NCBI GenBank assembly: GCA_014526335.1
Contig: JACTAT010000009.1
Coordinates: 1,307,961-1,371,960, forward strand
Direction of reading: 5' to 3'
DNA from: Chrysaora quinquecirrha
Lineage: Eukaryota; Cnidaria; Scyphozoa; Semaeostomeae; Pelagiidae
DNA: 64,000 nt
The notes below the pieces were generated by a model. The model was not told the DNA's origin. It ran no database searches and saw nothing but the letters and a program-made list of their open reading frames with translations. The first letter of the stretch is position 1, and every line of letters starts with the position of its first letter. A program made the position numbers and the translations under genes. Of the stretch, positions 36,601 to 60,600 are shown in pieces.

Positions 36601-39600
36601 ATAACTTCACTGAATAGAGTTGCTGCCACGCTGTCTGAGCTGTAGCCAACTAACCCAAGATAAGGCATATCTACTAAAGTTCTATTTCAGTCTTACCACT
36701 CAAACAATAAATTTCCGTATATTGTTATATGAGAGTCTGAATAACTGTTCTCTTTGCACAAGGTTTCAAGTGCATTGAATGATCTGGATGCCTTTCTGAA
36801 GAGAATAGAGCCAGGTGTCGAGGCAATCACAGGGGAAGAAAGAGATATCATTTCATTCATGAGACTAATGAGAATTTTCAATGAGGTTTGCCAATCTATA
36901 CTTTGTTAAACAAAAATACATAAACTAACGCTTCTATACTGCGCTACTACACTTAACTTCCATATGCTAGACTACGCAATGCAGTAAAACCCGCACATAA
37001 GATTCTGAACGCAGCCTGATTGGGTTCTTATGTAGTAAGGTGTATACCATAATCATGGTGTAGGTTCTTAGTAAAGGCACTTAAGCAATTGCCAAGAATA
37101 ACAATGCATGGTGTAAAATCTAGCAGCTTCCACAGCTCCTGCTAATCACTGTTCTGAATGCAGTGTTTTGGAGTCCATGTAAGGGGTTTAGCTGTCGTCA
37201 AAATCGTGAATGGGATGGGTTGGAACTCTGTATTAAAGAGCCGCTGTGGTCTTTGGATATCAGGCGAAATGGTTCTTATATATTGAGCAGGAAGCGTTTA
37301 ATTTCATGTTGTAAGTTCTTTATATAGGGAGGTTCTTATTTGTGAGCTTTCACTGCATACTTTTCATTAGCTCGCTATTATTTTGCAAGTCAAAATATCG
37401 CATTTGAACATTTAAATACCGTAAATCTATGCCACTTATTCATATCTGATGTATTTCAAAATATTTAATTAATAATGTACTTAATATGTACTTAATATGT
37501 ACTTAATAATGTTCTTTTTACAGGTAACTGCTCAACAATCTGAGCTGGACACGAAATTCGCCACCATGAAGAAAACTATCTCTGTGCTCGAGAAATATGA
37601 ACAAAAGTTACCAGAAACGACACAGAAATTTTATTCCGCAGCTCCTATTAGGTAATCTTCAATAATATGATACTTTTAGTATAGCATTAGTATAACATCC
37701 CCGCAGTATGTGATTAGGGTTCTTGGTAGGCACAAAACCTGTGCTGACTTGCAGCCTAGTTTTTTCTAGAGCTGCTAGAGCACCTCAGGCTGTACTAAAC
37801 GTAATTGTTTTTTTGTTGCTTTCTAAGATGGAACAATCTGAAAATGAAAGTCAGCCAAGCTAAACAGAGACTTGGTCCCAGAATCCAAGCAGAGGCTGAC
37901 AATGTTTCAAAGGTAACGAATGTAACTTGGGTAACTCTATCCTAATCTATCCTAATGTTTGCCATCCATGAAAGCTCATATCGTTGTATTGCTAGCTTGA
38001 TATATCTATCTATTGCACGTTTGTATTTCCCAAACATATTTTCAACTCTATTGAGCCTCTGATAATGCCGTTCTGTCTTTCCCCATAGACACTGTTTGAT
38101 TTCGGCGAACGCTGCAAGGAACTGGACTACGAATTCCGATCAAGTGAAGCCTTCAGTCGATCTTGCTTAATTTACACTGCACACAGCATCATGGACTCTG
38201 TTGAAAAGAGGCTGAATGTAATTGAAAGTGAGGCCCAGGTATGCGATTCAGTTATTTCTGATAAAATGTTTGAAGCCAAATATGATGGAAATATGATTAT
38301 TTGTAATGAGAAAAGCCCCTTCAGTTGAATTATAGCCTCCAAATGTACATTGTTGCTCTACATCGCTATACTCAGACTTTTAAGCAATGTTTGTCAAACA
38401 TTTGATACTGGGCCCAAGCTAAACGATCAAACATTGTTTACCAAACATTGGAGAATCGCTTTACAAGCGATGTTTGTCCGTTTGACCACGTCACAAACAT
38501 TACTTGAACTTGAAAATTCGACATCAATATTTTTTACAAAGAATGCTTTGCGATGTGATCACACGGTCAAACATTGTGTTTGAGATGCAAATCTCAAATG
38601 CTTGACAGACAGTGTTTGATCTTTTGGCCATGGCCTTAAGCTTCTGATCCTGAGCAAGAATCAGTTTATACTCAGTGTTTTCATTATGTTTTTTCTAGGA
38701 TCTAGTTGAATTGCAAGAACTGTTGGAGAAAGAAGTAGCTGACTTTTCTATACTTCCAAGGCAAGTTGCTAACAATATAAAGTTGCCTAAATTGACGCCT
38801 TTCTGATTAAGGGCGATCAGTTGGTCGGGCTACAATCTCGCAGAAAGCTTTATTTCATAAATTGTAACTTTTTTTGGTGGGGAAGGGAGTCGATATACAA
38901 GGAGATGAATTTTGTAAATATATCTCTCAATAAGTTTGACCGCTAATCGGATTTATAATTTAAAAGAAAACAATATTTTTTCCTTATAGTTTACGTTCAG
39001 ATCTCGGAATCTTGAGAAATGTCTGGGAAACAGTAAAGTAAGTAATTGAACTTCTCAAATATTTATTTCTTTTGGTAGAGTGACGAAGATACTCAGCCTT
39101 TGGTAAAACCAGAGAAAGTGTCTGTCAAACAGCTGAGATTTGCCTAAAAATCCCCAATTTTCTCAACTATGAAAGACTCGTGAATAGTTTCTGAGTGGTG
39201 CAAAATTTGAAAATTGGGAGAAACAGCGGAAAAATCTCTGGGCATAATTAAAAGCTTTTTCTTTTAATCTCAGAGTATAAAAGTCAGAAGCAGTCTGAAA
39301 TCATTGACTAAAGCAGAATTTATAGCCACATGCAGATCGAAATGCACCAATCAGAAAGTGAAACCGAATTGGCATTGTATTGTAAACGCCAATCAGCTTG
39401 TGGGATACAGCGGAAGACCAATAGAATTAAATGAAGAGCCCAGACAAAAAGAAATCGTTTTCTCTCTTTTTTCTCCTAAATCATATCAACGCTTATAACG
39501 ACGATTAATGTCTTCTTGTTTACTTGTTTCAAAGGCTTATTCAAGAACAGCAAAGTGATTGGAAAAGGCATAGATGGCAGAAAATTAAACCGAAATTGCT

Positions 39601-42600
39601 GCGGAAACTACTTATTCAGCAAGAAGACTTAGTGAAGCAATTACCAGAAAAAGCGTTTGGCTGGGATGTTACCATTGGCATCACAATGACTATTGAAGAC
39701 ATGATGGTAAGTGTAATGATTAAACTGCTCCTATTGCCACAACCATTGCTCTTTTAATTATCAGTAGTTGCACTGTTTCCCTCTAAAGACTGCTCTTAAT
39801 ACTTTTTCTGCTACTTGCACTAGTACTGGTACCAATGCTGCTCCTCCTACTACTACTACCGATGCTCTTTTCAATGCCACTAGTGGCATTATAAATACCA
39901 GTGCTTCTGCCAAGCCAATAATACCACTGGTGGCACTGTTACTAATTACAATCAATGTACTTCTACTGGCACTAAGCTTCTCATATCTCCACATGCCGTT
40001 CTTAATTCTTCTACTGATACTTGCACCAGTACTTCAACCACTTTTTTTACCACTAGTGGTACTGTTACTATCAGTCAATTTTTTGGCACTATACGTTCCC
40101 TACAACTAATACTTCTACGTTTACTGCTACTGACTACTCTTGCTTCTTCCACTGCTACCCGAATTAGTACTACTATCACTGGTAGCTCTACCCCTACAAC
40201 ATCTTATCATTCTGTCACCATGCTGTTACAAATACCGCCCGTTCTGCATCCACTGCTGCAAGTTGTAGTCTTTCTACTACCTCTGCTGCTCCTATTGCTT
40301 CTACAATTGCTGCTTCTACTCTTCCTAACCCTACAACCCCTACTGCTTCCGATGCTATTCTTACCTCTGAGACCTCTACTCATTTCTCCGTTCAGCCATT
40401 CCAACCAGTACTTGTAACACTAGTATGCCTACTAATACCGATGCTGGTCCTGCCGTAACTGCTGCTGGATGTGTTGCTGCAGCCGCTGCTTTGAATACAA
40501 CCATTGGAAGTCTTACTACTGCTTCTTTTTCTTTGCAGTCTTGCATTCCAATCATGGAAGACCTTAGCAAAGCAGCAATGAGAACCCGTCACTGGAAGCA
40601 GCTTGTCCGTGCAACAGGAGGTGCTGTGAACATCAGTAGTGGAGGACTCACAAAGATGACTTTGGGTCAGTTTCTTGAACTCGGTTTGCAAAATCACGCA
40701 GAAGAGGTTAGAGGAGTCATTCAGAGGTCATCTAAAGATGTCGGAATTGAGAAAACATTGAAAACATATGAAGAAGTTTGGCTGAGTAAAACGTTTGAGT
40801 TGATCAAGCATACTCGATTGTCCAACATGACAATGTGCTCTGTGGCAACACTAGACGTAAGTACATTGTTCTATACATTCTTTTATTTTCGCTAAAATGT
40901 TGTATTAAAATAACACGCGTTTTTTTTATAAAGAACCACTTTACAAGGAACCTTCATGTAGAAAGCGCGAAAAATTAAAGAACTTTTGTACTCGAAAATC
41001 ACTGAGGGACTTTTCAATGTTGAATGTTTTTTTTCACTACAAATAATTAAGAATTAGAAAACCGGTTCCAATCATTTGCAGTCCAAAATCACATAAATTG
41101 TACGTTACGCATGTATCAAATTTTTCCTCGACTAGTCCCGAGCCTTGCTTACAAGCAAGTTTCTGTGTATAATGGTCATGACACTGAATGTGCAGTTCAA
41201 TTAAGGAACTATTAAGGAACTACAATTGACTCAAAAGTGGTCAAGAAATAAGGAACTTTAAGAACTAGGCCTTGAGCTAGGTTCTTTATAAAAAGGCGTG
41301 TATCTGATTTGATATTTTCATTCAGACCACTTGACTAGTTTTTTATGCATGGTCTAAATAGCTCGTCTAGAGTAGGCTATAGTGCTTTACTGATCAGGTA
41401 GTATACAGCTATAAAATTTCCATTTTATCCACAGACCCCAGCAAGCGAGTTTGGCAATGATTCTGAACATGGTCCTGCAGCTGCAAGACAGTCAGGGAGT
41501 CGAGTTTCATTAGCAAGTATGGGATTAAGAACTGAATCAAGACTTCGTCTTACGTCTTTGTCAAACACGTCTGTGCAACAGTCTTCATTGATGAGCATTG
41601 CTGTAAGTTGATATTCAGAAATTTTATTTCAAATTTGATTTTTTGGGTTTGATTTCAAATTTTGCCATGAATATAAAGACATTTGTACACCTGCGAGGAG
41701 AATCAATTCATTGCATATTGAAAGACCCTGGAAGACTATTCTAGATGAAGTTCAGGGGCACAAATTTGTGAAAATATTCAACATCATCCGGAAAATATCA
41801 GAATAACAAAGTAAAGCGGAAACATGTTGGAAGATACTTAAAATGCTTTTTTCATTCTGACACTCATCAGAGCAAAACGTTAGAAACAGACCAAACAATT
41901 GAATTAACTAAGACGGAATTTATAGCCAGATGCAGATCGAAATGCACCAATCAGAAAAGTGAAGCTGACTACTGTTAATTGTATTTTGAACCCAAATAAT
42001 CTCTGGGAACACAGTGGGAAGACCTACAGAATTAATAAGTTAGAAACGAACTCTTTTTACTCTACACAGAACCATCCTTTACCAAACTATAGCAGACTAA
42101 ATTTTTCCCGTGTTTTACCACGATGTGTTATTCCACCAAGAGTTTATCGTCCCATCTTATTCAAGATTGTTTTCATTCATTATTATGTTATTCAGCAAAT
42201 GTTTATAAAAAGCAGTTCAGAAGCTGTTATTTGAATCTTCTTCTATTCGAAGGAAATGGGCGATATTTATCTGCTAAAGAATATTGAACCTATTCTGGAA
42301 GAGCTGGAGCTACATCAGGTTTGATACGATGCTTTTAACTCATCATACGGCCCAAGAAAAGGATAGCGTATCTAGCTTGGACCGCTTAAAATAAAGAATA
42401 ATAGGAGAAAAATAGATAAAATCTAGAAAGTATATGTAAAGAATTACAAGAATCTGAGATATAACAAAAGCGAACCTTTATTCTTTAAAGAATCTCAAAA
42501 TTTGCATGCGGGTCAGAGTATTTATAGAGTAAGTTTGTAGAGTTTGTGAATTGATGTCTATACCAACGACGGATGTTGAATGCTGATCAATGAACGGCAG

Positions 42601-45600
42601 CTATTACTAGACCATTCCATCACTACTTCAAGTGATATCCTCAGTTAGCGACAAACAAGGCAAAGTGAGCATGATTCACTATATAGGATAAGGCATATCA
42701 CCAATCCTGTATAGACTTAATTGTAATAGAAGCGATTGAGATACAGCTGTATTACTTAAACAGGACAAGGATGTTTAATTTTAGGCACGTTGCATAACCT
42801 GTCCCAACAGATATTGTTATCGGCATCGTTCGTAGCAGAAGGATCTTTAACTGCTGCTTGGGTTTTACGTGCGCGCAGAGAACACACGGAGTCAGACGAC
42901 ATTTGAGAGACGATTCTCTATCATGTCCGATCAACTGACTTTACTTTAACTTCATACTGACTTCGTACTGACTTTTACTGACTGACTACTTATTTACAGA
43001 GTTTCTAAGTTATAGTATTTACAAGTCACATGATCTATTGCGCAGTTAGAAATTATACATGCAACTATGTTCTAGCAGAAAGTTCTAATTATAATGACGT
43101 GCAAGTACTTACGTAAATAGATAGAAGGCATAGAAAGATCATAACGTGCAAGAAGACATACGTTACATTTACATGAAGTAGCTGTTCCTACTACAATATT
43201 GGGGGGACTAACTACAAAGTATTGGCAAAGTACTAACCGAATGTCTTTGTTTCAGCTTTCCCTGCAGTCAATGTTTGGTGGAAGTGCTGCTAGTTCATTC
43301 ACGGATGACATTGTTAAATGGCAGAAGACACTACAAAATCTCGAAGCTGTTCTAGTGTTATGGTGGGAAGTTCAACGAAAATGGGTGAAACTGGATGATG
43401 TAAGTCGTTTTGACACTTTTGAACTCTAAAGTTAACTGATCAAAGCTTTAAAATCGATGAAAACGTCTTGTGTTCAAATCTAATTTGGATCAGCGTCCTC
43501 AAGCAACCGGTGTAATCGTTCTAGAACATCGGTCCTGGGGCAAGGGTAAGATGAAAGTGAAATTGGGTATCAGGCACCATTCGCCAGGACCTCAGGAGAA
43601 GTTAGACTAACGAGACATTGACCCTTGCTCTGAAGCACCAAATGGGAGTTTGCAGCCCAACTCAACTGAGTGCCTGATGTCATATTCCCTATTGATGGAT
43701 TAGACCACGACACAAGAGCTCCTTTGAAGGGACACAGGCTGAAGATGCACATTAACTTTCTATTGCTCCATTGAATTCCGACTTGTTGCTTTTGACTTTT
43801 ACTTCATTATATCTTGTTAATCAACCATTTTTTTGGATCAAAAAGGGGACAGGTGTTGTATGACCCGTTGTCCCCTTTCTGAGCTTGGTTGGTTGCCTCC
43901 CTGCTCAGCTGTCCCCCAGAATTAAAAAATGTATTCAAGTGACACTGAATTATTGATATAATTGATAAAAATCATTTCTTCTTTTAAACAGATATATAGT
44001 GGAACTGACTGCAGAGTTGGTCTTCCGAAAGAGACAAATCTCTTCGCAACATCAAGCTACGATTTTAGAGACATTCTCAAGGCTACGGAGAAAAACCCAA
44101 ATGTTTTACAGATATGCTCCAAAGAAAGTATGTAGCAATTTCATTTGCAGTAAGACCTTTCGTTCATATTTGTGCTTTATGCTTCATTAGAAAAGCAGCC
44201 TTTCATGCTAATTAGAAAATTTTGTTGCCAAGCAAAGTGACACTAAGATGGATTGGTTGGCCTGCGTGCAGACTTTACTGTCCATTGCGAAGGAGTGCCT
44301 ATGAGGAACTTGTAAGTTACAAGTTTAGGCCAACCAGGTCAGGGCTTGGTTGGCCTTAATACGTTTAAGTACTGTATGTCGTTGCATACGATAAATGAAA
44401 ATAAGAAGCATCTCTCTCGTTTGTTTATGTGATAACATAATGTCTCAACTATTCTTATTTGTTAAATTTCAGATATATATACTAGATTCGAGAAAATGAA
44501 CTCAAATTTTGAGATTTGTCTCAGAGCTCTTGTTAACCATCTCGATAGAAGAAAGCAAAAGTTTCCTCGTTTGTATCTGGTATCAACTGAAGATGTTCTT
44601 GATATTGTTTGCAAAGGTAAGAGGGCCCCGCCTGACTAGTCTTGTATGCTAATGCAATCTTGTTGTTTATGTGACTTAATTAACGGAAAGAGCTAATAAT
44701 GTTCTATGTAGCTTGCAAGCTTGCAGTTTTTTTATTATTCTTCTGGATTGTGTTAGTCGTGAATGATTGTACTGATTAATCTTGGGATTAATTTGATTCT
44801 ATTACTACTGATCATAGTAGGCTTCATTTCATCGATAATACGGGTCATAGTTATCTTCTACAAGGCTTGGTACCCGTGGACGCCGATTTGAAATTTCTGA
44901 ATGGGAGACTCTTTTCCTAAAAACAATTCGGGGAAATACAGTGAACAGAAACTTAGACAAACTCCACATTTGAGCAGAAAGCATTTTTGCAAATTTAGCA
45001 AGGTGTTGGGATGGTGGAGGGGCTGAATCCAAGTAACAAATGTTTTCCCTACACAGCCAACGTTGACAATAATTTGGCTTTTTATTGTATTCTGGTTTAT
45101 TTGGCCTAATTTGAGGTACCTTTATACACAGATTTGCATGCACATCGATTACCATGTCATACATCTATATTGTTATTTAGGCTACGATCCTGGACAAGTG
45201 AACCCACATCTATCCAAGATCCTGCATAATGCTTGTCTAATGGATTACGATATGCAAGAAAGTGACGAGAGGCATTTCTATCGCATCACTGGAGTTAGAA
45301 GCTTGCATGGAGAAGTTTTGAAGTTCGTCAAAGTAAGTGTTGGATTTTGAGTTTGATTTCTTTGGATTTCATCTTTATGCTGTATGAAAAATTATGTAGT
45401 TCCTGTAGCTAAAGACCAAGAGTTAAAGAAAGAGTTAAAGACCAAGAAACCCGTTTTTAAAACAGACTGTTTAGCACCTTCACATAAATGCGAGACCCTG
45501 ATTTTCCGATAAATGGACAGTATGTTACTTCATTTTCAACCAAACATGTATCTTAAGATAGAGGGGTGCGTTAGCATAGCTGGACCCATCCACACCTTTC

Positions 45601-48600
45601 TGTATAAATTTGGATAATACAGTACTTATACTTTCTGTAATAATGCACTTTTGAAAACGAGCGTAACAATCGATGCCTGGGCTGTCGAGCTCGAGAGACA
45701 GTACGGGGACCGGGGGGTGGGGTAATGTAACGACAAAAAGATCCGTTTCACTAACGGTTGACTATAACTTACTTAAATAATATATCCAGTACTTTTTGTT
45801 ACTATGTAAAATATTTCACTGAAAGAATTGTGGAGCTCTATGAAAAAGTTATTGAAAGCTAATGCCCGATAAAGGGAAAGCAATTACATCTACTTGCAAT
45901 TTATTGACACCTTTTCTTGAAATCTTGCAAAACCATATAAAACCTGAAATAGTAGAAGCATAACCCAAAAGCTCCCACGCGTAAACATTCCTGTCTTGAA
46001 ACATTGCATTAGTACGTTGAAAACACCTATTGTTATTAATTTTAGCCTGTGGATTGCGATTCAGCTGTAGAGATCTGGCTCAACTCGGTTCTCACTGCAA
46101 TAAAATCGACCCTGCAAGTTGGTTTAGCATCTGCACTTGGAATGCCATTACCAGAAAACTTAAAATTGCAGCAAAAGCATCCAGTGAAACAACAATACCT
46201 GTCAAATCGGAATCGAAAACCAAGAAAACGGAATCTACGCAAAGGAAAGTATTGTTTGCGCCTGAAACCGAAGTTGTGAAGGAGCTTGATGACACTGCGC
46301 ACGTGGAAATCAACCTGCCGTCGTCATGGTCACTGAGAAACGTAAACGAGGTTGTTATCCTTGCCCTGCAGATTGAGTTGACAAAGAAATTTGAAAAGAG
46401 TTTTGAAGAATTACATTCAGGGAACCGAAATGCACTTGATGACCTGCGCGAGCATCTGTCAACAATTGTCCAATCAGCAGCCAAAGTCTTGCAAGGCTCT
46501 GAATCCAGTGATCCTTTACATGAAGTAATTGATGATTCTGATGATCAGAAAAAGATATTGACACAGGCAGTAATGAAAACAGGAGAAACAGCAAAAGGCT
46601 CCTACAGATCGTAGGTACTCTGAAGCTCCCTCAGTCCCCACAATGGTGTTGCTACCTAGTCAAATACAAAAACTAACAAACCTCGTATTCATACTGTCAT
46701 CAAAGCGTGACTTGGCAGAGAGGCTGTCACGGCTTGTGAAATCAATTGACGAGAACGAAAACGAGGACAAGAAGCTGCTACAAGAGACATTTGAATGGCG
46801 TTCACAGATTAAATATTACTGGACTCAATCGAATGCAAGTTGTCAAGTCTCGATTATGGATTATGAATCCGATTATGGATTTGAGTATCAAGGCACTGCA
46901 CCTCGGATGATCACGACTCCTGAAACAGACAGAGCTTTCTTTTGGTTATGTCAAGGTTTTGCTTCTAACATGTCTGGTCTTATCACTGGCCCTTCGGTAA
47001 GCTCAATTTTTTTGAATTAAACTCTTTAGATTCCTATCGTGCTTTTGCTGTTATCTTACAGAGAATAAAACCCGCGATGCCTTATCAAGCTCTTTCTCAC
47101 TTAAGCCCCCTCAAGCCGCACTTTTTTGAGAACATTGTCATTTTCAGTATATTTACCTCCATATTTATCGCTTCTTTCAAAGCTTTTAGACCCTGTGTGA
47201 TACGCCTCAATGGTGAACGAAATAGAATGAAGCTAAGCTGTACCCTGTTATGTCTTTTTTCTTTTTTAGCTTGTTGGAAAGAAAGAAACCGTGCTGGAGC
47301 TATCAAATGTGTTTGGCTGCCCTCTTTTTTCATTCTTGTGTTCGGAGAAGCTTGGCACTCGAAGAATTGGGGAAATATTCAAAGGAATTGCAGCAACAGG
47401 TTTGCTTAATAACTTATTTAGTTGAATCATCAATAATTTCACCCCTGGTGGTTTAATATTTTCTATAGACTTTAATTATCAGGATCAAGTTTTCAAGTGG
47501 TACTAAAGAAGGCTCAACATAGCCGAAACACAAAGAAAGTCAATCGGGAGGAGAGCCTTGGTTTGTATGACTTGGACCGACTTGGACAGTTACTAGACGA
47601 TTTCATTGAGCTCTTTAGCTCAGTGGAAACGTCGTTGGCTCCCTGACCATGCTGCCCAGGTTCGAATCCAATCTATTGTTGTGTGCCACTTTTGTAAAGA
47701 CTATCATAGTGCTAGCCATTTGTGACAAATATGTATTCTTTCTGATGTACGCGTCTTCACGCACCAAAGAAATAACATTTCCTAATTTTTGACTTACAGG
47801 ATCTTGGGCTTTGTTTCAGAATATTGACAAGCTCACAGGCTCTGCAATTTCTGTAATCGGGCAACTGATGTCAGCTGTTTCAGAAAGTCTACAAGCGAAA
47901 AAATCGACAGTTTTCATACAAGATGAAGAGCAACCCTTATCAGTAAACGCAAAGATATTTTCTACAGTTCATTTGAACACTAACATCGATAACAACTCAA
48001 CTCAGAAAGCATTCCCTCGCATTAGCTCGTCACTGTTCTCTCTACCTGGAGTACTGCTAGAGAAATTCAGGACTGTCTGTATATCAAAGCCGGATGTATC
48101 AACAATACTAAACTTGCATCTCATTATACACGGATTCAAGTACTCACAAGAACTTGCTGGAAAATTAGCCAGTATTCATTCATTGTGGTCCACGCTATCA
48201 ACTCATAGCCATCCTGCTTCTATCAAGACAATGTGTAACGTCATTGCGGATGCTGGAGATTACAGAGACAAACTAAAGGTAACAGAGGGAAATGTTGACG
48301 TAACAGTTATTTATGAAAAGGAGGCTGAGGAAGAATCAGAGCGAGGCTCGCTATCTCCTGTTGCTTCACTAGCGGATTCTGAAGAACAGAAAGAAGAAAA
48401 TGTAAATAAAGGTAAGAAAAAAGAACATCCCTTTTCTAAATGCCCCCGCCTCCCTGAATACAGGCCCCTCTAAACGTTTAAAGATTAAATATAAACCTTA
48501 ACGGCATTTCTTATTTGTTATATTCCCTGATCGTTGATTACTTCTCCATAGCGATTAAACGAGAATAGAAAACATCCACATGGTGCCTTGCGACCTTTAA

Positions 48601-51600
48601 TTTTCCAAACACTAGGCTCAAGATTCCTCTTCAATTCTTATACTTACAGTTAGAAAATTAGAGGATCTATTTGGTAGCGGACCTGAAAACTCTTAAAGGA
48701 AAAAAGAGGTCACCTTACAAGAAGAAAAAGCTCCTTTCTAACTAATTCAACCTTCCTTCACTTTAATTTGTTTGCCAAATCGTTGGAGACTTGACAATCG
48801 ATAGTTACCAATGCAGAATGAGTGTAGATTCTATGGGGTACAGGTTTCATTTCTGGAGTTTCCCTTCGCCAGCAATAAGCAACCATAACACTAGTGTGCT
48901 TTCTGTAGATAGAAAACGCATGTTTGGTAAGCATCATATTCAGGATTCCTACTTATTTCATTGGTACTTTATTAGGAGTGAGAAGAAGAAAGTATGATGT
49001 TATCTATCGACTTCTATCTGCGGGATCTGCGGAATAGAAATCTCGCACGCGGGTTGTTTGAAATGGATTATAGGCTCAAGATAAGGAACTTCCATGTTAT
49101 TGTTTTAACTGTTTATTAAATTTCTAGAACCGAGTACAGAAAAGCGAGAAACCATAACTAAAGATGAAAATTCTTTCATGGAATACGAGAACCAACAGAT
49201 GAAATACATCGAAGAGAAAAGCATTTTATTAGCCGTGCGGGGCAGCGTATCACCTTCCCTCTGCGGTGCAGATGCCATCATGTTTGCAACAATGCTTTCG
49301 GATTATTTTCCTTCGATTGATATCCCTTTGTATTTGACAATATCACAGAGCAAGAGAATAATCTAAGCATTGGTGAAGATACGATTGGATTGAGCCTACA
49401 ACAAGAAGAAGGTGCGCCATTACGATCATTGCCAAGTTCGCCTCAGCCAAAAGAACAAGGTAGGTGAATGATTTTGACTAGTGCACATGAAGTGTGCGTG
49501 TGTCTTGGTACTAACTGTCACGTTGCCACACATGAAGTCCATTTACATGAGCAAACAGAACTTTCAAGGGAAATTTCAGAGAACAATTGCTCTTGGTCGT
49601 GTAACATTGGGTCAATATCGTTGCACAAACTTGTTTTTATTTGAAACCTTTCTTTAAAATTGCGAGAAACAGCGGAAATATGCCGGGTATACTTAAAAGA
49701 TTTTTAGATCTGACACTCCTCAGAGTATAAACGTCAAAAGCAGACAGAAACGAGAAACTGGATCGGCTCTGGTCCGATCAAGAACCAGTTTATTATTCAC
49801 TATGTTTTCTTATTTTAGCTGTCAGTGATTTGGAGTCAGCCGTCCGCATCGCTGTTGACCGATTGAATCTGCAACCTGGATCTTCATTTGTCGGACGGGT
49901 GGTGCAACTCGCCCAGCTAACGGCCACTCAAAAAACGGTACTGAAGTCATAAATCTCTTGAATTTTGTTGTTTTTTATGTTGAATTTTAAGCCATAAAGT
50001 ATTATTGAACTTCTCTTCCTTTTTCAGGTTCTTGTCGTCGGTCCATCCGGATCAGGAAAGACTGAATGCATCCGGACTCTTATCGCTGCCCAAAGAGAAA
50101 TGGGCCGAAATGTCATCTACGATTCAATATACTTAGGAATGGCTGATTCAGAGAAGCTGTTTGGCTATACTGATGCTAGATCAGGGTATGTATATGAAAT
50201 TTTTCAAAAATCCTATTCTATACAGTATTAAGCTATTACCTCACCACCAAGAAACTGACTTTGATGAAGATCATGGATCGAAAAGTTTACAAAAGTTGTC
50301 TATATCTTTTAATTTCCCATTTGGTATATATAATTTATATATATATATATATATATGAGAAGCCAAGCAGCCTGGTTTTGCAATAATTAGTTTCTTAGTG
50401 GCTGGGTGATGCTGAATTCTATGCTATGGAAACAAAGCAAAAAAGTAATTTTGCTTTGACACTTTCCAAATTATAAAACATCAGAAACAGACCTGCATAA
50501 TTTTGTTCACCAATATTCAACTTCTAGACTGTTCAAGGATGGTCTTCTGCCTTCAGTGCTTCGCCGAAAGCTTCATGACTTGTGTAAAAGCGAATTTAGT
50601 ATGGCGTCAAATGACAGCAAAGATATGAGATGGATTCATCTTGATGGAGTGGTAAGAACACATTTCTACCAATTCTAATAATCTTTTTTTTATGATTTTA
50701 TAAAGCAGAAATGCCTGGTTAGTATGCTAATTACTAAGCGAGCAAGCAGTCTTTATTTGCATATTTTGGAAGGGTAAACAGCTAGGCTGATGTTGACCCC
50801 TCCTTCTTATGGTCCCGAGCTCATATTCTAGAACGAATTACCCCGATAAGGATGAATAATCGACTGGAATGAAGACTTGTTGTGGTAATCCCGACGAGAT
50901 TCCAACCTGCAACTTTTGACCGTGAGTCGAATGCTTCGCTACTGTTGTGCACCAGAAGATCTTGAAGTCTAATGGAATGAATAATATAATGAAAACTTTT
51001 CGAAACCACAGAGTATTAAAGAGTCTATGATGTGGATATAATAATATTCAACTATAATAGGGTCAAGCAGGCGGACAAGTGCTGGAACACGCTGAATAGA
51101 TGAGACCTTTAATCCTGATTTTTGTAGGTCACGAAGCGTCGACTATGGTCATCGACGTGTGCTTTACAACGGAGTAATATTTTGTTTTCTATTATTCATC
51201 GGGATCCATCACAAGAAACAAATTTTTGGGACTTTGTGCTTCTTGCGATAATTCCCGATGTACATTCGAGCAAAGGATCATTCATTCTGCGATGGTGACC
51301 ATTGCCATCTGCATGTTGCAAAGACAGCGAAAGTTCTCGCTGTTCCGACTCTATCACTCAATCATACGGCTGACCTATAAATTTATCAGTCTTCAGTTTC
51401 AGAAAATCTTATCTCCCCGGATTCAAGTTATCATTCTTTTAAATTCTAGGTAGACTCAGCTCAGATGGATCTTCTGTCTTCAGTTTTGTCTGGAAATGGT
51501 TAGTATTTGTAGCCTTAGCTTTTTCGTTCTCTATAAAAATAATTTTTCAAAGAATGAAAGCTGAAAAAACAGCATAGGTTCACTACGTTTTAGGAAAAAA

Positions 51601-54600
51601 AATACTAAGAAACTTAAACTCGTTATGAGGTCACCTCTTATTACGATAGAAAGATCCATGGACTACACAAACACCTTTTCTCCAATTTCGTAAACCCCTG
51701 ACCCCCTCATGATTACGATGTCTTTCAGTGAGTCTGATTGCTTGAGAGAACCTCTTCTAAGACTTGAAAACATGATCAAATCTTGCTTCGTTTTACAAAA
51801 GTATTAGCTACTGGTCTGCTTCATCTTATTCTCTGGTTTTTCTGCGATCTGATGCCGTGTGATTGTATCTTCCTGTAGTTTATGCTGGTGTTATCAATAG
51901 CCCTTTCTATATCCTTCTTGCTTTCCACTTCATAAATGAATATTGTATTTGTAGTTCTATGTATTTTTTTACTTCACGTTACAGATACAGTGATCCTGCC
52001 AAATTCCGAGAGACTTCATTTGCCGACAGCAGTTCGATTCATCTGGGAAGTATGTACTGCCATTAAGCATATTTCTTACTTCTGTTTTATTGTATTTTTT
52101 ATAATCTTGCGTTTTCTTTGTTTTTTAGAAATACAACTGGGACTATTTAATAGGGTGTAGGAAAGATGCTACAGGCCGAGTAAAAGTGAATAATTAAAAA
52201 CAACTGATTATATACACTGTCTAAACTAACGAAAAGCCTCAAGAAAACATCCTTCTAAGCTTCCCTCTTTTGAAGCAAGGACTAGAAATGAGCCAGTCTC
52301 CTTTCTATTGATCCCCCTCTTTTTAGCCACGGACATTGATTGCTTACAAACTGAATTGCGAAGCAATGTTTTTAAACAGCTCAAAAACTCACGTTCTGCT
52401 AAGAATCTTTGACAAGCAATGATTTTGCCACATGGCAAAATAAACAAACATTTCGCTTGACAGCAAATTTCTGGCAAATTTTTGGCAAGGGCCTAACATC
52501 AAGCTGGCCAAAATCAGAATTTATTTTTATTTATTAATAAGGTTTTCCTTCTAATAGGCCTCCCTCTCTAATAAGCGCCTTCAAAATTGTTCTCCAAAGC
52601 TAAAAAGCCCTGTCAGCCTTATAGAGCTTTCTTGGTATTTGTTATCTTCGGTATCAAAACATACAGTCACTGATTGTTTCTTGTATTTATTCTTCAGATC
52701 GACTCACTAGAGAACATCAGTCCATCTATAATACGAAACTCTGGAGTGTTGCACCTGAATCCAAATGACGTTGGATGGGAGCTTGTTATACAGAACTGGC
52801 TTTCAAAACAACAAGAAAATCGCAGAGAAACTCTCTCACGTTTGTGCCTTCGATACATCCAACCCACGCTTGACTTTCTTCTCAATGAAAAGATTCATAA
52901 TGAAACAGAAAACAAGAAATCTGTTGTTGGGTACAATCATCCTCGTGGACAACTTCAGCATGTTATTAGTTTATCGAATTTGGTCTTAGTCAAGAATTTG
53001 TTCTCCATCTTTGAGGTAAGTTTGAATTAAGGAATTTTCTGGTTGCATCATACAGTGAACAAACCTTCGTACAGCGGACACCTCTATAAAACGGACAGCT
53101 GTAGGACCGATGTTGCTGTCTGTTGCAGAGAGGTTTCCGGCTTTTTAACAAAGAAATAGCCTGTTGGTCAAAATTGTTGTCCGGTGTTTGGTTCTGTCCG
53201 TTGTAAAATAGAGGTGTACGTTAAACTGTTGTTTCTGGTAATGTAATTTTAGCGAATACTTATGAACTATTTTGGGTAATTAGAATGAGCGTCAAATAAC
53301 AATCAAAGTTAGTAGAGAAGTGCGAAATTTGAACTTATAATAACCCTCTTTTTAACAAGCTTTAATTGGAGTAGCTTGGGGGGTCTTTTTGAAAGGGGAC
53401 CCTAAATATTGTATCTATGTACAGGTGAACAGAAATTCAAAATCAAGTTTGAAGAGCATCAACATTAAAAATATGCGTCTTTATACTTTTATGTGCATTT
53501 TAGAAATGTACCAATAGACCAAATCGGCTACCCATTTGAGATCACATGGCCATACTCTTGAGGAGCTTTTCCTTTAATTGAATTCTAAATTTTGGGCCAT
53601 GAAAAGCATGGTTCGAGCTCTGAATTTGACAACAAAGCAATGGTTCCTCAAGGGAATGACCATGTGACCTGAAATGAGTGTAAACAACGTTAGCCGATTT
53701 GGTCTCATTTTGTGACAGTGTTATGTTTCGAATGGCGTGTTAGTTAATTGTGCCATCCCGCCTATTTGCTATCTAAAACAAATTTGCATTCCCTTTGAAA
53801 GTTCAATTTTCTTTCTGCTTTTTGCTGTATTTCAGCCTAACCAAATAAATATTTTTTTTATTTAGGCTTTGATATCCAATGCTCAAGATCCGACAACTGA
53901 AAACTTCGAGAATTACTTCAATTTTTCTTGTTTCTGGGCGTTTGGCGGTAACTTGATCAAGGAGCACAGGGAGTATTTTAGTAATTGGTGGAGAGACAAA
54001 TGGCAAGCTTTCATTATATTTCCAGATAACGTTTCGGTAAGTCATAGATTTTTTACGACGCTAAAGCATTTCACGTATTTATTCCGGGGAGGGTTCTTCC
54101 AGAAACATTGGGTACAGGTGAGGCTCCGTGGCGTCGAAATGTACGCACGAATCGATACATACGGATCATAAGATATCCGAATGGATACCAAATAACACAC
54201 ATTTAAGATAATGTGGCCACGTATAGTGAAGAAAATATGACCTCGAAATCAGCAGACTTTGGCGAAAAAGATATGGTTATACTAAAGAACATCTTGGAAA
54301 ATCTTCAAAAATCGAGGTTTTTCAACATCATTCAGAATTTTCAGCGACGATTTTTATTTCATCTCTTCTCAAACCTCTTCACTGTCTATGTCAGTGCAGA
54401 ACTCCTCGAAACTCAAGGAGATTTTTGTGGAAGAAATAGATTTCTGACGTTATACAAGACCTTTTTGGATGGTAGCTTTATTTATATTCTCCCTTCATTT
54501 CCATATTTTCAAATCACAAACCCGTAATTTCTTTTTTTATTCTAGATTTGGGAATGCCAAGTTCATCCAGAAACCCACGAGTTTGTTCATGTATCCGAGA

Positions 54601-57600
54601 TACTTCCATCCTACTCCGGGAAGCCGAATGCTGCTTTTCCAGCGGATGCACATGTGGTTACTGTGCAGAACATGGTATTATTTTTATGCTTATTTATTTC
54701 AGTAAGGATTTCCAAAACTTTGGCATTGTCGACTAAATAAGTTATTCAAGCTTCTGGAAAGGAGTAGAAGATTTTTTGTAAAATTTACGTTGAGAACAAG
54801 AGAAACAACTGTGTATCATTTGACGATAGTGGCGACTAGTATTACATAAACATAGTTACTAAAAGCATATATGTATCATTAATGACGAGCACTAGGATAG
54901 ATTTTCCACACGTGGCATACCACAATAGACTGGGTCGAATTTGGACTGCATGACCATAGAGCAAACGACAGTTCAACTGAGCTTGAATATATGTCATGAA
55001 TGGCGAACATTAGGATAGATTTTTCACAAGTGGCATACTACAATGGTTTGGGTTCGAACCGTTCAAAAAAGTCAAACAGGGGGCGAGCCTTTGGCTGTAT
55101 GACTTGGAGAGTTTCTAAAAGCATACATGTCGTATTCAATATTTCTAAAATCAAGATCTTGTTGTCATTTTAGGTACTATCACACTTAGTAGGAGCTCTA
55201 GCAGAATCAGGAAAACCAACACTTCTTATTGGTACTGCTGGCTGCGGAAAATCTCATATCATCAAAGAGCGTTTGTTACATAATTCTTCAGAAATGGCAG
55301 AAGTTCAATCATTGTTCATTAATTCAAATAAGTTCATTACTTCGACAACATTATGGCAAAGAATGGATGATTTCCTTGAGTGGAAACATACGAGAACCTA
55401 TGTGCCAAAAGGAAATAAAAAATTGATATGTCTTATTGATGATCTGAATCATAGCAATGTGAGTTATTGTTTATGTTTGTTAGATATTAGACATGCTACA
55501 CTGTGATAACATTTATGTAAGAAGTAAGAGACACTCTTTATAAGAACCTTGACCTGGAAACCTCTCGTTCAATGTAAACCTTAATGTAAACCTTCATGTA
55601 ATACCTGGAAAAAATTACAAAGAAGAGCAAATATGCACACCTTGATTTGTTGACAAAAGTCAAAGATGTTTGTTTGCCAATAATCTTTCTGGAGCATTGA
55701 TATATTTGTGCCAAAAAACAGGTTCTTAAGTATTTTGGGGTTGAACAGCATCCCTCTTTAATGATAATAATCACGTTGAGCATGATGATTTTGATAATCT
55801 TGATGGTCTTGATCATGATGATGATCAGCATGATGTTGTTGTTGTTGATGATGATGGTGACGTTAATGAACATAAAGATAAGGATTATGAAGACGACGAC
55901 GACGATGATGATGATGATTGTGATGATGATTGTGATGATGATGATGATGATTATGATGATGATCATCATCATGATCATCATCATGAAATTACTGACTTCT
56001 TTTCTACTGTACTTAATCATTAATTACCATACCATCATTTTTACAGACAAACACCTCAGGTAGCCAATCAGCGTGCGAGATGATGCGTCAGATTCTGGAT
56101 CACAGGGGATCATTCTATTACGACAATTGGAAATGGCGGGAAATTCATGACGTCACATATCTTGCAACGTATAATCCTTGGACAACAGTATCAACACCTA
56201 CACTTAGCAATCGATTGCTGAGTAAATGGGTTGTTCTCTACCAACCTTTTCCAAGGTAAGTTGTATTCAGATATATAAGGGATCTTTCAAGCTACGTTAA
56301 TACGATCCGCGATTCGATAGGACTTTGTACCGTATTGTTGTCCGTTTCTATGAAGATGATGATGATTATGACAAAACGGTGCGAAATGAATATGGTTTTC
56401 TGTAACACCTCAGTCAGATATGACTTTGTTATGTAGCTACGAAGCTTTATTGACTGTCAGCCCTTTATCGTAATTTTGTGCAATATATACCGGGCACGGT
56501 TTTCATTTCAAACCGTATTCATTATCATTATCTTCTTCATGTTAATGAAGAGACCAATTCAGTACGAGTTCTTATTTTCTTATTTGAATACGATTTCCTA
56601 AACGTAGCCCCAATTTTTCAGTTTATTGCCTGCAATAATAATTTTAGTTATTGTAGCCTATAAATGTCTTGGCTACATAGATAACAGTAACTACAAACCT
56701 CATAAAACTTTAAAGAATATCAAGGAATATGTTACAACTTATTCATTCATTCATTCATTCATTCATTCATTCATTCAATTATTTTTTTTATTTGTAGAAT
56801 AACAATTTATAGCAATGACATGTATTTTGAACGATCCAGGAAAAGCTATACTTATCTTGCTTAGGTTTCTCCAAAAAACTAACAAACTATCAACAAAAAA
56901 TTACGTGACGAAATATTAATAATTTTAAAGATAAAAAGGAGGTTAAAAATAATATTAATTGACTTAATAGTTGACATACTGACATCAAGTAAAGCAGAAT
57001 AACGTCACGATCAAAGCCGATAAAGGGAATTTTTTCTAACATTATCAAAAATTGAAATTAAGCTTTTATCTGATGTATGTTTTCTTGGATTGTAAAGCTC
57101 TAATGTCGTTGGCTGTTTGCTTTAGTGATTCTGCAAGGTTATTTTCATAGTCAAGCACCCAAAGCTCTTCTCATTTCATGCCCCCATATTTTGTTCGGTG
57201 AACTTCATGCATATAGCAGTGCTCATTTATGATAAAGTTACCATGCTCTTTTCAATTACGTTTCAGCGATCATGAGCAGCAAAGCGTCTATGGAACATTG
57301 CTCAGAACGCATTTCATCCTGCCGTATACTCAGTCAAGCCAAGAAAACACTGAAGAAATTGTTTCCAGTGAAACGTTACGTAAGCAGAAAGCAGAAAAAG
57401 ACATGAAACAGCTTTTAGAGTCAATTGTCAGTGTGACAGTCGAAGTTCAAGAAAATCTTCGTGGGATGTTTCTGCCGACTCCAGATAGATGCCATTATAT
57501 GTTTACTCTTAACAACCTGAATATGATTTTTAGGTGAGTGGTTCTTGTCATTTTTACTTACTAGAGTACCCTATGCTAAACCCCCTGTTTTATACTAATG

Positions 57601-60600
57601 CCCTTTCTTACTAAACCCCGTCCAATACTTTGTAGTGTGAAGAGATAAACTTGTCTGGGTCGACTTAACTTTGCTTTACTTGCCTTTGCTTGTATTCTAA
57701 CTTGGCTTAACTTGACTTTCGTTCATCTTATTCTATTTGCTTGTATTCACTTTATTTTCTTTTCTTTACTTTAATTTTCTTTGCTTTACTCTACTCTACT
57801 TTACTTTTTTTACTTTATTTTACTTTATTTTACTTTACTTTACTTTATTTTGCTTTACTTTACCTTTCTTTTTTTACTCTACTTTGCTTTATCTTACTTT
57901 ACATTTCTTTATCCTGTGGCTTATGTTTGAAGAAATTCGAACATATTGGTGTGGGGATGTAGTGTCATTAACCAACGCTTGAGCAATGGGAAATGTGTAA
58001 CAATGCTTAGCATCCAATTGATTGCATTACTAGTCGTTGTAATATTTCTACTCATTCTATACTTCCTCTTGGTGTTCCCTGTTTGTTACATTTGTATCTT
58101 GCCAGAAACCTCCTTAGCTGTTTAGAGTGCGTTATAATAGCAACAGCATTGAAGGATCCATTCATATAGGAAATAATGATTGCCCATAACAAGCCATACA
58201 GAAACCTCGGTGTCTCTCCTTTTCCACTATGATTAAGAAAAGATCTTATCATTTGCATCACATGATTTGGTACATAACAGACGACGAGTGACGCGAGAAC
58301 AAAGATCATTCCCTTGGAAAATTCTCGTTGAGCGCTTGACTTCTGTTTTGTAATGCTTCGGTTTAAAGTCGAGTCCTGTATACGACGATTGATGGATCTA
58401 TATGCACCCATATAATAGACAAATGTTGTCAATATGGCGATCAAGTACACGCTTGTTAGCACTGGGTGGAATATAAAATAAAACCCAAACAGCGAAGAAA
58501 ACGTTAAAACCATAGTGGATGTTAGACTAAAAGTTATGGCTGCACCGATAGCTGCTTTAGTTCGTCTCTGAGTCATCACATTACTATAGTCGTTTAAGTA
58601 CCTCATGTGAATATAACGATCGATGGCCACACATAAGGTCATCCCAGCTGAAAATGGACCGAAAGAATACAATAAAAACTGTATTATTATCCCTGCAATA
58701 TCTCTGTGTAATTGAAGCTTTATATAGGGCAGTCCTTGTATTGTTAGTTGGAGTATTCCCATGCAGAGATCGGATATGCTTAAACAAGCTACTAACTTGT
58801 ACGAAGGGATTGCTAATTTCTTCAGCTTTTTCAGAGCGTAGATAAGAAAGCCATTCAGTAGTATGTTTGATATTCCGACAACGTTGTTAACTGTTAGAAT
58901 AGTTATAAGTTGAGCAGGAGTCATTTCTACGTATTCGATGAGACATGTCTGCCATCTTGGAGCCATCTCTGTCTTTTAAGCCAAATGTTTGTTGTGAAGT
59001 CGATCTTTTGTTAATGATGGTCTAGAAAAACAAGAGTTTATTATTTTGGATGTTTTTCTACAATCCATTAAGACCGTGTTCTTCTAAACAAATTTTTTTC
59101 GGTAGCTTACATTTTTCGAAATGTGTGTTTTTCTAATCCATTCGTCTGAAAACAGCAGGTTTGGAGCTCTCCAAAACCTTTTGTCATCAGAAGCAGAAGG
59201 CTTCCGAGACTTTCGATAGATTTTCGGTTTGAAGTTAGAAAGAGACCATTTTACAAGTTGCCAGGATACATTCCACGAATGGGTCTAGGGACGAGGCAAA
59301 CAAGAATTTTGGCGCGAAAGTTTTCAGATTTCCAGAATTCATGTTTCTTATTTCTCCAAAATTTTACTTTATATCTACACCGCAAAAATGGAAATTTTGG
59401 GCGCTCTAACAGAGCTTTATGACTGAGTAGCCCATCATGTGTTTGAGAAAATTCTAGGCCGTGTTCTTCTTAACCTCAAAAACCTTCCGCATTTGAAAAC
59501 AGAGCCTTTTTAACACCTAAACCAACGTTGCTGGGCGAGAAATGTTGGCTGGAATGTTGGATGAAATGTTGATCGTTTCAATACTGCAACCAACATCATG
59601 GGACAAGAAATGTTGACTGAAATGTTAGATGAAATGTTGGTCGTTTCAATACTGCAACCAACATCGTGAGACACTTGATGTTACAGACCGTTTTGTTTTT
59701 TACAGGAATCTTTGTCTTGCTGTTGGACCAGGATGTAAGGAGAGCTATTTGTTAATGCTTTGGAAACACGAGTGTGAAAACATCCATGGAAGTTTGTTGT
59801 TTGATAAAGTTGACAAAGATAGATGGATGCAATTGTTTTTTACAACTGCTAGAAAGAGACTCAACAAAAACCAGGTAGGGTCGATTTTGTAATTTCAGCA
59901 TGCAAAATGCAAACTCCTTATTTTCGGTCCGCTTGCGTCTTGGGTGTGTTCATTGAAGAATTTGTCGTACCGGCTAATCGAGATCTCTTTAGATTTGAGT
60001 GAGATCTCGGAAAGTTTTGCTGTAAAAATTAGTATTTAAACATATCCCACGACAAGGAACAGTATAAGGAACTTTCAGCCTCATTTTGTGGAAAAATTAA
60101 GGAACTCCATCCTCAACTCAGACCAAAGGTTCCTTATAAAAAAAAACCTGTAGCAAATGCCTTCACGATACGGCAAAGTTACTATAACACAGAAAAAGCG
60201 AAGGTGCATGAGAGATTTACTGATGACTGAGGACAGATAAAAAAGATAATGCGAACTTTTTATGATTTGCCATCACAGAACATATCGTTTCTTTCTTGGT
60301 TTCGTTAGGTCTTTTATTAAATTTGCTTGCAGTTTAAGAAAGCTATTACGGGTTTGGTAATCACATAGTGAACTTTTCTTTCCTTAAAAACTATTTGCTT
60401 TGACTAAAGAGTTTGTAATGCTTTGAAGTTAATCCTAACTCATACTTCTGATTATCAATGGAATCCGTCAAAAGAATATTTAATTCAAAGATGTTTACTT
60501 CAAATATCTATGTGCGACTCACCTGCGTTATGTTTGCATCTACAGCTAGAAATTAAGTAGCGGTCGTTTTGTTGGAGCTTTTTCCATTCATTCTCCTTAT

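What the first reader, a model, noticed from the sequence alone, without database searches (positions are those of the whole stretch)
46980..59874. Dynein heavy chain with a dead AAA1 but intact AAA2 and AAA3 P-loops: a pseudo-motor
AAA1 is the main ATPase of every working dynein. Here its Walker A reads GPSLVGKKET (threonine replaced by lysine), Walker B reads LFQNIDKL (both acids lost), the sensor-I Asn is gone and the arginine-finger region is changed. AAA2 keeps GPSGSGKT and AAA3 keeps GTAGCGKS with IDDLN. The exons are clean, in phase and conserved elsewhere, so the gene is under constraint as a protein with no normal power stroke. This fits DNHD1-like dyneins; in an early-branching animal it would show that loss of AAA1 chemistry is old.
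Basis: partly seen in the sequence, partly recalled or inferred. Interest (0 to 1): 0.85.

Follow-up and report, generated by a model that had tools for sequence, protein, structure and literature searches.

The report
Animal-wide dynein without its engine
This DNA encodes a giant protein of the dynein motor family whose main fuel-burning site has lost its key residues, as that site has in the related proteins examined here from corals to amphibians, so it likely works as a fixed microtubule anchor in cilia and not as a motor.

Summary
The motif reading is right. The gene is larger than reported, about 18,088 to beyond the window end (AAA6 at about 84,281 in extended coordinates). AAA1 has lost the Walker A Thr, both Walker B acids, the sensor-I Asn and the Arg finger supplied by AAA2; AAA2 and AAA3 keep their P-loops. 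The AAA4 P-loop, outside the window, is lost too. A tree without AAA1 columns puts the gene in a clade of corals, lophotrochozoans, an echinoderm, amphioxus, a tunicate, sturgeon and a newt (100/100), sister to outer-arm beta dyneins (DNAH9/11/17). Walker B Asp+Glu at AAA1: 0 of 70 clade rows (window included) against 218 of 221 other dyneins. AAA4 P-loop: 0 of 73 against 222 of 224. AAA3 P-loop: 73 of 74 clade rows. The loss is therefore old. The best-conserved motor part is the stalk with the microtubule-binding domain; AAA1 identity is 0.40, against 0.89 in beta dyneins. Inferred: an ATP-insensitive, linker-docked microtubule anchor, as in yeast AAA1/AAA4 double mutants. Caveats: identity with DNHD1 was not testable; four one-base frame breaks sit in this copy; no RNA was seen; the C-terminal domain was not found.

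The parts
18088..35196 (+). 5' exons of the same gene: tail (DHC_N1 region), from a candidate first Met exon 18088-18193 onward
   Evidence: gene finder and tblastn of P0001 and the coral protein P0002, which matches from its residue 1 at 18090
35443..45332 (+). tail end and linker (DHC_N2 region), e.g. exon 40539-40856 (tblastn piece 89% identical to P0001)
   Evidence: Pfam DHC_N2 in P0001
46046..46996 (+). linker end and start of AAA1, ends ...LITGPS (first residues of Walker A); holds two one-base frame breaks (46145-46180 and 46577-46611)
   Evidence: the only match to itself in the genome by DNA search
47270..47399 (+). AAA1 exon with altered Walker A: LVGKKET..., Thr to Lys
47800..48411 (+). 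AAA1 exon with lost Walker B (ALFQNIDKL) and lost sensor I (STVHLNT)
49128..49461 (+). AAA1-AAA2 segment with a one-base frame break near 49327
49819..50185 (+). AAA2 exons 49819-49937 and 50028-50185 with intact P-loop GPSGSGKT
50528..53015 (+). AAA2 exons: WIHLDG (50631-50648) and the AAA2 Arg-finger segment SIIRNSG (52725-52745), Arg to Asn
53866..54674 (+). AAA2 lid and AAA2-AAA3 junction exons (53866-54036, 54546-54674)
   Evidence: Pfam Dynein_AAA_lid
55174..55458 (+). AAA3 exon with intact P-loop GTAGCGKS and Walker B LIDDLN
56047..57533 (+). AAA3 exons with sensor I ATYNP and NRLLSKW (56047-56255, 57267-57533)
59706..59874 (+). AAA3 lid exon; the gene continues outside the window (AAA4, stalk, microtubule-binding domain, AAA5, AAA6, to about 84281 in extended coordinates; 86572-94756 is withheld and the C-terminal domain was not found)
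63667..63813 (+). probable AAA3-AAA4 linker exon, the last one seen inside the window
   Evidence: weak tblastn support, E 1.3e-4

Best explanation
The window carries most of a dynein heavy-chain gene whose AAA1 site has lost the Walker A Thr, both Walker B acids, the sensor-I Asn and the Arg finger of AAA2 while AAA2 and AAA3 keep their P-loops, and its product likely acts as a non-stepping microtubule anchor in cilia. Shown: it belongs to a clade found from corals to amphibians in which AAA1 Walker B and the AAA4 P-loop are gone and the AAA2 and AAA3 P-loops remain in nearly every row, sister to the outer-arm beta chains; the stalk with the microtubule-binding domain is the best-conserved part of the motor. 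Inferred: without AAA1 and AAA4 nucleotide the linker stays docked and the microtubule-binding domain stays in the strong, ATP-insensitive, direction-dependent state of the nucleotide-free motor, so the protein holds a doublet and does not walk. Inferred: nucleotide at AAA2 is structural, and ATP at AAA3 is the one remaining possible switch. Inferred: the place of work is the axoneme or ciliary assembly. Likely, untested: this is the lineage of vertebrate DNHD1.
For: Motif counts (window included in the clade rows): AAA1 Walker B Asp+Glu 0 of 70 clade rows against 218 of 221 other rows; AAA1 GxxxxGK[TS] 3 of 69 against 219 of 221; AAA4 P-loop 0 of 73 against 222 of 224; AAA2 P-loop 72 of 73; AAA3 P-loop 73 of 74. 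Trees without AAA1 columns: clade support 100/100 in the careful tree, AU p 7.9e-8 against placing the window gene and P0001 with canonical beta dyneins. Conservation: AAA1 identity, coral against bilaterian, 0.40 in the clade against 0.89 in beta dyneins (cnidarian or placozoan against bilaterian); stalk plus microtubule-binding domain 0.60 against 0.70. The genome has other dynein genes with intact AAA1: all five control loci show CFDEFN and four of five show GPAGTGKTE. [quoted passage not shown] yeast dynein with AAA1 K/A and AAA4 K/A together shows in 1 mM ATP the stalk registries of a motor whose AAA1 cannot bind ATP (alpha under backward, gamma under forward load), and AAA4 K/A blocks linker undocking and is immotile as a dimer (PMC7683685). 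If the clade is DNHD1: zebrafish dnhd1 knockdown gives fewer and shorter cilia with no significant change in beat frequency (PMC9749982), and human DNHD1 variants disturb sperm flagellum structure (PMC9916431).
Against: No expression data. Four one-base frame breaks in this copy, against two frameshift-like places in about 13,900 aligned residues of five control dynein loci, leave room for recent inactivation in this species. AAA1 is not the least conserved segment: the last part of the ring with the C terminus (0.32), AAA5 (0.33), the linker (0.37) and even AAA2 (0.38), whose P-loop is kept, score lower than AAA1 (0.40) in the clade, so much of the motor has drifted. The Walker A Lys survives in 52 of 66 clade rows and the full GK[TS] in 3 of 69, so weak ATP binding at AAA1 is possible in some. 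Sensor-I Asn is kept in 8 of 70 and the Arg finger in 10 of 71. Hydractinia (P0171) lacks the AAA2 P-loop as aligned. The yeast mutant comparison is with a cytoplasmic dynein. The clade's microtubule-binding domain carries its own one-residue insertion, so its binding may differ. Ciliary location is not shown for any clade member here. The C-terminal domain of this gene was not found.
Confidence: 0.6

Rival explanations
1. A regulatory or assembly partner: it likely pairs through its tail with an active heavy chain, as non-catalytic motor-like subunits do in kinesin-14, and modulates that motor or the building of cilia without anchoring microtubules by itself.
For: Tail and linker are retained and well conserved against P0001 (up to 93% in a tail exon; Pfam DHC_N1 and DHC_N2 in P0001). 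Zebrafish dnhd1 knockdown changes cilia number and length, not beat frequency. Kar3 with a non-catalytic motor domain is a precedent (PMC4338441, search listing only).
Against: The stalk and microtubule-binding domain, which such a partner would not need, is the best conserved part of the motor.
Confidence: 0.23
2. A remnant of a duplicated dynein on its way to becoming a pseudogene, as has been suggested for human DNHD1.
For: Four one-base frame breaks in this copy; drift over much of the ring; a published suggestion that DNHD1 may be a ghost gene or becoming a pseudogene (PMC8754002 passages).
Against: Long, mostly full-domain members in many phyla, with branching that mostly follows the species tree; AAA2 and AAA3 P-loops kept in 72 of 73 and 73 of 74 rows; stalk exons 71-100% identical to P0001 at 71339-74966; no in-frame stop in the 18 exons checked. 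Some of the breaks sit next to runs of A, C or T, as assembly errors do.
Confidence: 0.09
3. A motor that still works, driven by ATP at AAA3 (with AAA2) in place of AAA1.
For: AAA3 P-loop and Walker B are kept (73 of 74 and 67 of 72 rows); linker and stalk are present.
Against: AAA1 is the only site strictly required for motility in known dyneins (PMC4879348); AAA4, whose ATP binding the yeast work found necessary for linker undocking, is also lost (0 of 73; PMC7683685).
Confidence: 0.06
4. An artefact: wrong exons or an assembly chimera mimic a dead AAA1 in a normal dynein.
For: The model rests on genome sequence alone; frame breaks occur nearby.
Against: Independent proteins from many species show the same losses; no alternative AAA1 exon in the readable part of 102 kb; splice sites are canonical.
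Confidence: 0.02

Closest known systems
[quoted passage not shown] human, 4753 residues)
   Same: An orphan dynein-like heavy chain outside the 15 named human chains, linked to cilia and sperm flagella (PMC8754002, PMC9916431, PMC9749982 passages)
   Different: No DNHD1 sequence from human, mouse or teleost was reached, so the AAA1 residues and the place in the tree were not compared. PMC9916431 calls the region of one variant the hydrolytic ATP binding site. One amphibian clade member (P0145) is labelled Dynein heavy chain 14 by its source, so kinship with DNAH14 is also untested
Outer-arm beta heavy chains DNAH9, DNAH11, DNAH17
   Same: Nearest canonical group in the trees; same domain order
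   Different: They keep GPAGTGKTET, CFDEFN, ITMNP and the AAA4 P-loop; the clade does not; the AU test rejects joining the window gene with them
Yeast dynein AAA1 K/A plus AAA4 K/A mutant (laboratory construct)
   Same: Both sites without usable nucleotide; AAA3 present
   Different: An engineered cytoplasmic dynein; here the changes are natural and old
Vik1 and Cik1, non-catalytic partners of kinesin-14 Kar3
   Same: Motor fold without ATPase that still holds microtubules (recalled; one Kar3 paper seen as a search listing only)
   Different: Kinesin fold; heterodimer partner; no relation by sequence

Membership tests
Dynein heavy chain family | Tail, linker, AAA ring and stalk in order | tested here: met
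   Window Pfam AAA_6, AAA_7 and lids; tail to AAA6 exons by tblastn of P0001 and P0002 in the window plus 38 kb downstream
Dynein heavy chain family | C-terminal domain (Dynein_C) | tested here: inconclusive
   Present in P0001 but not found in this genome's readable stretch; 86572-94756 (extended) is withheld
Canonical motor dynein (all DNAH and DYNC classes) | Complete AAA1 catalytic set: GK[TS], DE, sensor N, Arg finger from AAA2 | tested here: not met
Outer-arm beta class (DNAH9/11/17) | Branches inside the class in a tree that leaves AAA1 out | tested here: not met
   sister position, AU p 7.9e-8 against joining;
AAA1-dead clade described here (P0001, corals, bilaterians) | Inside the clade in a tree without AAA1 columns | tested here: met
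   100/100; 100 and 98 SH-aLRT
AAA1-dead clade described here | AAA4 P-loop lost, AAA2 and AAA3 P-loops kept | tested here: met
   AEGFPGLPL at AAA4, GPSGSGKTE, GTAGCGKSH
DNHD1 | Orthology to human or mouse DNHD1 by tree | not testable with these tools
   No such protein among the listed hits (120 of 137, 120 of 333, 120 of 383 listed) nor so named among the PDB hits shown (60 of 84 in each)
DNHD1 | Ciliary or sperm-flagellum role | not tested
   Only published work on vertebrate DNHD1
Pseudogene | Reading frame broken and no constraint | tested here: inconclusive
   Introns present; four one-base frame breaks but strong conservation against P0001 and no in-frame stop in the 18 exons; no dN/dS was possible

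The most novel reading that the evidence does not exclude
Before cnidarians and bilaterians split, a copy of the outer-arm beta dynein gave up its engine (AAA1) and its linker release site (AAA4) and became a permanent, direction-sensitive microtubule staple of cilia. Animals from corals to amphibians have kept it since, and human DNHD1, filed as a ghost gene, is its last vertebrate form.
Probability: 0.42. Interest if true: 0.86.

Novelty: new variant of a known kind. Interest (0 to 1): 0.73.

Why it matters
AAA1 has been described as strictly required for motility and as holding the full catalytic set in all dynein isoforms (PMC4879348, passage). A clade kept from corals to amphibians without it shows that a dynein ring can be kept for something other than stepping, and gives a natural test of what AAA3 and the microtubule-binding domain do by themselves. 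If DNHD1 belongs here, its description as a decaying ghost gene is wrong, and the reading of one infertility variant as a hit on a hydrolytic ATP site (PMC9916431) needs revision. Full-text searches on DNHD1 and on inactive dyneins (30 of 33 papers listed, 15 of 172, 10 of 32, 12 of 277, 15 of 22, 7 of 7) listed no paper whose title or abstract start reports a shared loss of AAA1; most of the listed papers were not opened. Kollmar 2016 is not held, and Wickstead 2018 and Gibbons 2018 are known to me only as citations in PMC8754002; any of them may touch on it.

Tried and rejected
Rejected: a canonical DNAH with misread exons (no other AAA1 exon; shared losses in relatives). Rejected: membership in the beta class. 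Tried without result: reaching DNHD1 of amniotes or teleosts; Kollmar 2016 by DOI (not held); an own-genome search for paralogues by protein (all busy, so paralogues in this genome were not searched by protein). No dN/dS: no DNA of a close relative was at hand. No structure prediction was run: the tool takes proteins read letter for letter from the window or fetched proteins, and the spliced model is neither.

Rows dropped or moved: for the counts, 304 listed proteins plus the window model gave 305 rows. Of these 72 (the window model and P0173 among them) were put in the clade from their place in the hit lists; 33 clade rows plus P0173 were placed by the tree. Three more (P0186, P0272, P0047) were moved in after their AAA1 motifs looked odd, and the tree, which leaves AAA1 out, places them inside, two of them on long branches. 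P0173 (Chromosphaera) was counted apart. That leaves 74 clade and 230 other rows; rows without cover at a site were left out of that site's n. Rows are not independent: several are isoforms or close species. The tree dropped six rows (among them the long-branched Hydractinia, Adineta and P0172) and added six; one search used 28 of the 56 rows. In one search two of the ten canonical rows (the choanoflagellates) entered no average, and the window could not be scored in the last segment.
Full report
What is there. The window (64 kb; its place in a 328 Mb genome is G000 C631:1307961-1371960) holds most of one plus-strand dynein heavy-chain gene. A small codon-and-splice gene finder and tblastn with relatives give exons from about 18088 through 59874 and on, past the window end, to about 84281 in extended coordinates (AAA6). 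The C-terminal domain was not found; 86572-94756 is withheld.

The AAA1 site. Walker A reads GPSLVGKKET (Lys of GK kept, Thr to Lys), Walker B LFQNID for CFDEFN, sensor I STVHL for ITMNP, and the AAA2 segment that gives AAA1 its Arg finger reads SIIRNSG for ATVSRAG. AAA2 keeps GPSGSGKT and an LDG Walker B; AAA3 keeps GTAGCGKS and LIDDLN. Pfam still recognises AAA_6 and phmmer aligns the region to solved axonemal dyneins. No second AAA1 exon was found. The AAA4 P-loop, read from downstream DNA, is gone as well: AEGFPGLPL for GVGGSGKQS.

Relatives. Three protein searches listed 304 different proteins. The closest is P0001 (eukprot gene16198-7569_t, 54% in the search, 66% over the 855 columns shared in the 28-row tree), which has an even more degraded AAA1 (GSTVSSRNE, IFANLD). 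Others come from Pocillopora, Orbicella, Lingula, Owenia, many molluscs, a nemertean, sea stars, crinoids, a sea urchin, amphioxus, tunicates, an acoel, rotifers, sturgeon, gar, lungfish and amphibians. Over all rows with cover, the window included: AAA1 Walker B Asp+Glu 0 of 70 clade against 218 of 221 other dyneins; AAA1 GxxxxGK[TS] 3 of 69 against 219 of 221; AAA1 sensor Asn 8 of 70 against 224 of 225; Arg finger 10 of 71 against 227 of 229; AAA4 P-loop 0 of 73 against 222 of 224; AAA2 P-loop 72 of 73 against 216 of 230; AAA3 P-loop 73 of 74 against 195 of 228. The two misses in the clade are Hydractinia at AAA2 and one frog at AAA3. How the clade rows were assigned is told under Tried and rejected.

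Tree. To avoid grouping by the dead site itself, trees used AAA2 to AAA4 only. In the careful tree (28 rows, 868 columns) the window gene pairs with P0001 (100/100), then corals (100/99), then bilaterians (12 rows, 100/100), then P0173 (13 rows, 100/100), sister to the beta class DNAH9/11/17. P0173 bears the tag Nk52, which one paper uses for the ichthyosporean Chromosphaera perkinsii (PMC6981761, passages). Forcing the window gene and P0001 to group with the beta rows costs 354 log-likelihood units (AU p 7.9e-8). Larger quick trees agree. P0173 is half way: it keeps GKT, the Walker B Glu column, sensor N, the Arg finger and the AAA4 P-loop but has Lys for the Walker B Asp. This suggests stepwise loss, with Walker B and the AAA4 P-loop gone by the cnidarian-bilaterian ancestor; GKT still stands in two corals.

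Constraint. Mean identity by domain, corals against bilaterians in the clade and cnidarian or placozoan against bilaterian in beta dyneins (2 by 14 and 2 by 6 proteins): AAA1 0.40 and 0.89; AAA2 0.38 and 0.77; AAA3 0.46 and 0.65; AAA4 0.49 and 0.73; stalk and microtubule-binding domain 0.60 and 0.70; AAA5 0.33 and 0.73; the rest to the C terminus 0.32 and 0.75; linker 0.37 and 0.70. AAA1, the most conserved part of the working motor, fell most, but it is not the lowest: linker, AAA2, AAA5 and the C-terminal part are lower still. The microtubule end fell least. The alignment shows a clade signature there (DLTWNKGAKR with one extra residue).

Frame breaks. The exons are not all clean. Near 46145-46180, 46577-46611, 49327 and (beyond the window) 67905 the frame shifts by one base relative to P0001; some of these places lie next to runs of A, C or T. 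An automatic count found three such places in 3,829 residues aligned to P0001, the fourth being seen by eye, and two in about 13,900 residues over five other dynein loci of the same assembly, one of which is more than half withheld. Assembly error is the simpler reading, but recent damage in this species is not excluded. The exon tested has no second copy in the assembly, so no second allele could be compared.

How it likely works. [quoted passage not shown] without ATP the linker is straight and the microtubule-binding domain holds tightly; ATP at AAA1 releases it (PMC4879348, passages). In yeast, AAA4 unable to bind ATP keeps the linker docked and the dimer immotile. The AAA1 K/A plus AAA4 K/A double mutant in 1 mM ATP takes the alpha registry under backward and gamma under forward load, the behaviour that the paper gives for the nucleotide-free motor (PMC7683685, passages). 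The clade has lost both sites. I infer a permanently docked linker and an ATP-insensitive, direction-dependent grip: an anchor or staple. AAA3, kept in nearly every row, could still tune the grip, since ADP at AAA3 is reported to weaken binding. A ciliary place of work is inferred from kinship with outer-arm chains.

Relation to DNHD1. Human DNHD1 has been called a ghost gene that may be becoming a pseudogene (PMC8754002, passages). Zebrafish dnhd1 knockdown gave fewer and shorter Kupffer's vesicle cilia without a significant change of beat frequency (PMC9749982, passages), and human variants give malformed sperm flagella (PMC9916431, passages and Discussion). These fit a structural ciliary protein without motor action. 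That DNHD1 is the vertebrate form of this clade is likely but untested: no human, mouse or teleost DNHD1 was among the listed hits, and one newt member is labelled Dynein heavy chain 14 by its source.

Verdict. The anchor mechanism is an inference.

Noticed in passing
window 58052-58975, minus strand: An open frame of 307 residues with a rhodopsin-family receptor domain (Pfam 7tm_1, E 3.7e-16) lies inside the dynein intron 57534-59705 on the opposite strand.
   Followed up: partly
window 61298-63275: A 30-base tandem array, 66.6 copies at 94% match, sits in the dynein intron after 59874; because the unit is a multiple of three it stays open in several frames on both strands and looks like a protein.
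   Followed up: partly
window about 8182-2968, minus strand: Open stretches that look like a BEL/Pao-type retroelement (by eye).
   Followed up: no
window below 1223, minus strand: Exons that look like an RNA pseudouridylate synthase (by eye).
   Followed up: no
window 13042-13489, plus strand: A second receptor-like exon (by eye).
   Followed up: no
window 15852-16797, plus strand: A 315-residue coiled-coil-like open frame without a Pfam match, just upstream of the dynein gene.
   Followed up: partly
window 31185: A probable GC-AG intron donor (CAG|GCAAGT) in a tail exon of the dynein gene.
   Followed up: no
window 59538-59673: A 68-base unit repeated twice (91% match) just before dynein exon 59706.
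   Followed up: no
P0171 (Hydractinia relative): Lacks the AAA2 P-loop as well, as aligned, and keeps only AAA3, so AAA3 may be the last site needed. Its sensor-I segment aligned differently in the two calls.
   Followed up: partly
P0173 (Nk52 tag, Chromosphaera): A half-way form: AAA1 Walker A, sensor N and AAA4 P-loop kept, Walker B Asp changed to Lys.
   Followed up: partly
P0001: The source gene model has the tail domain DHC_N1 at residues 1984-2178, inside the ring sequence, probably a mis-joined model.
   Followed up: no
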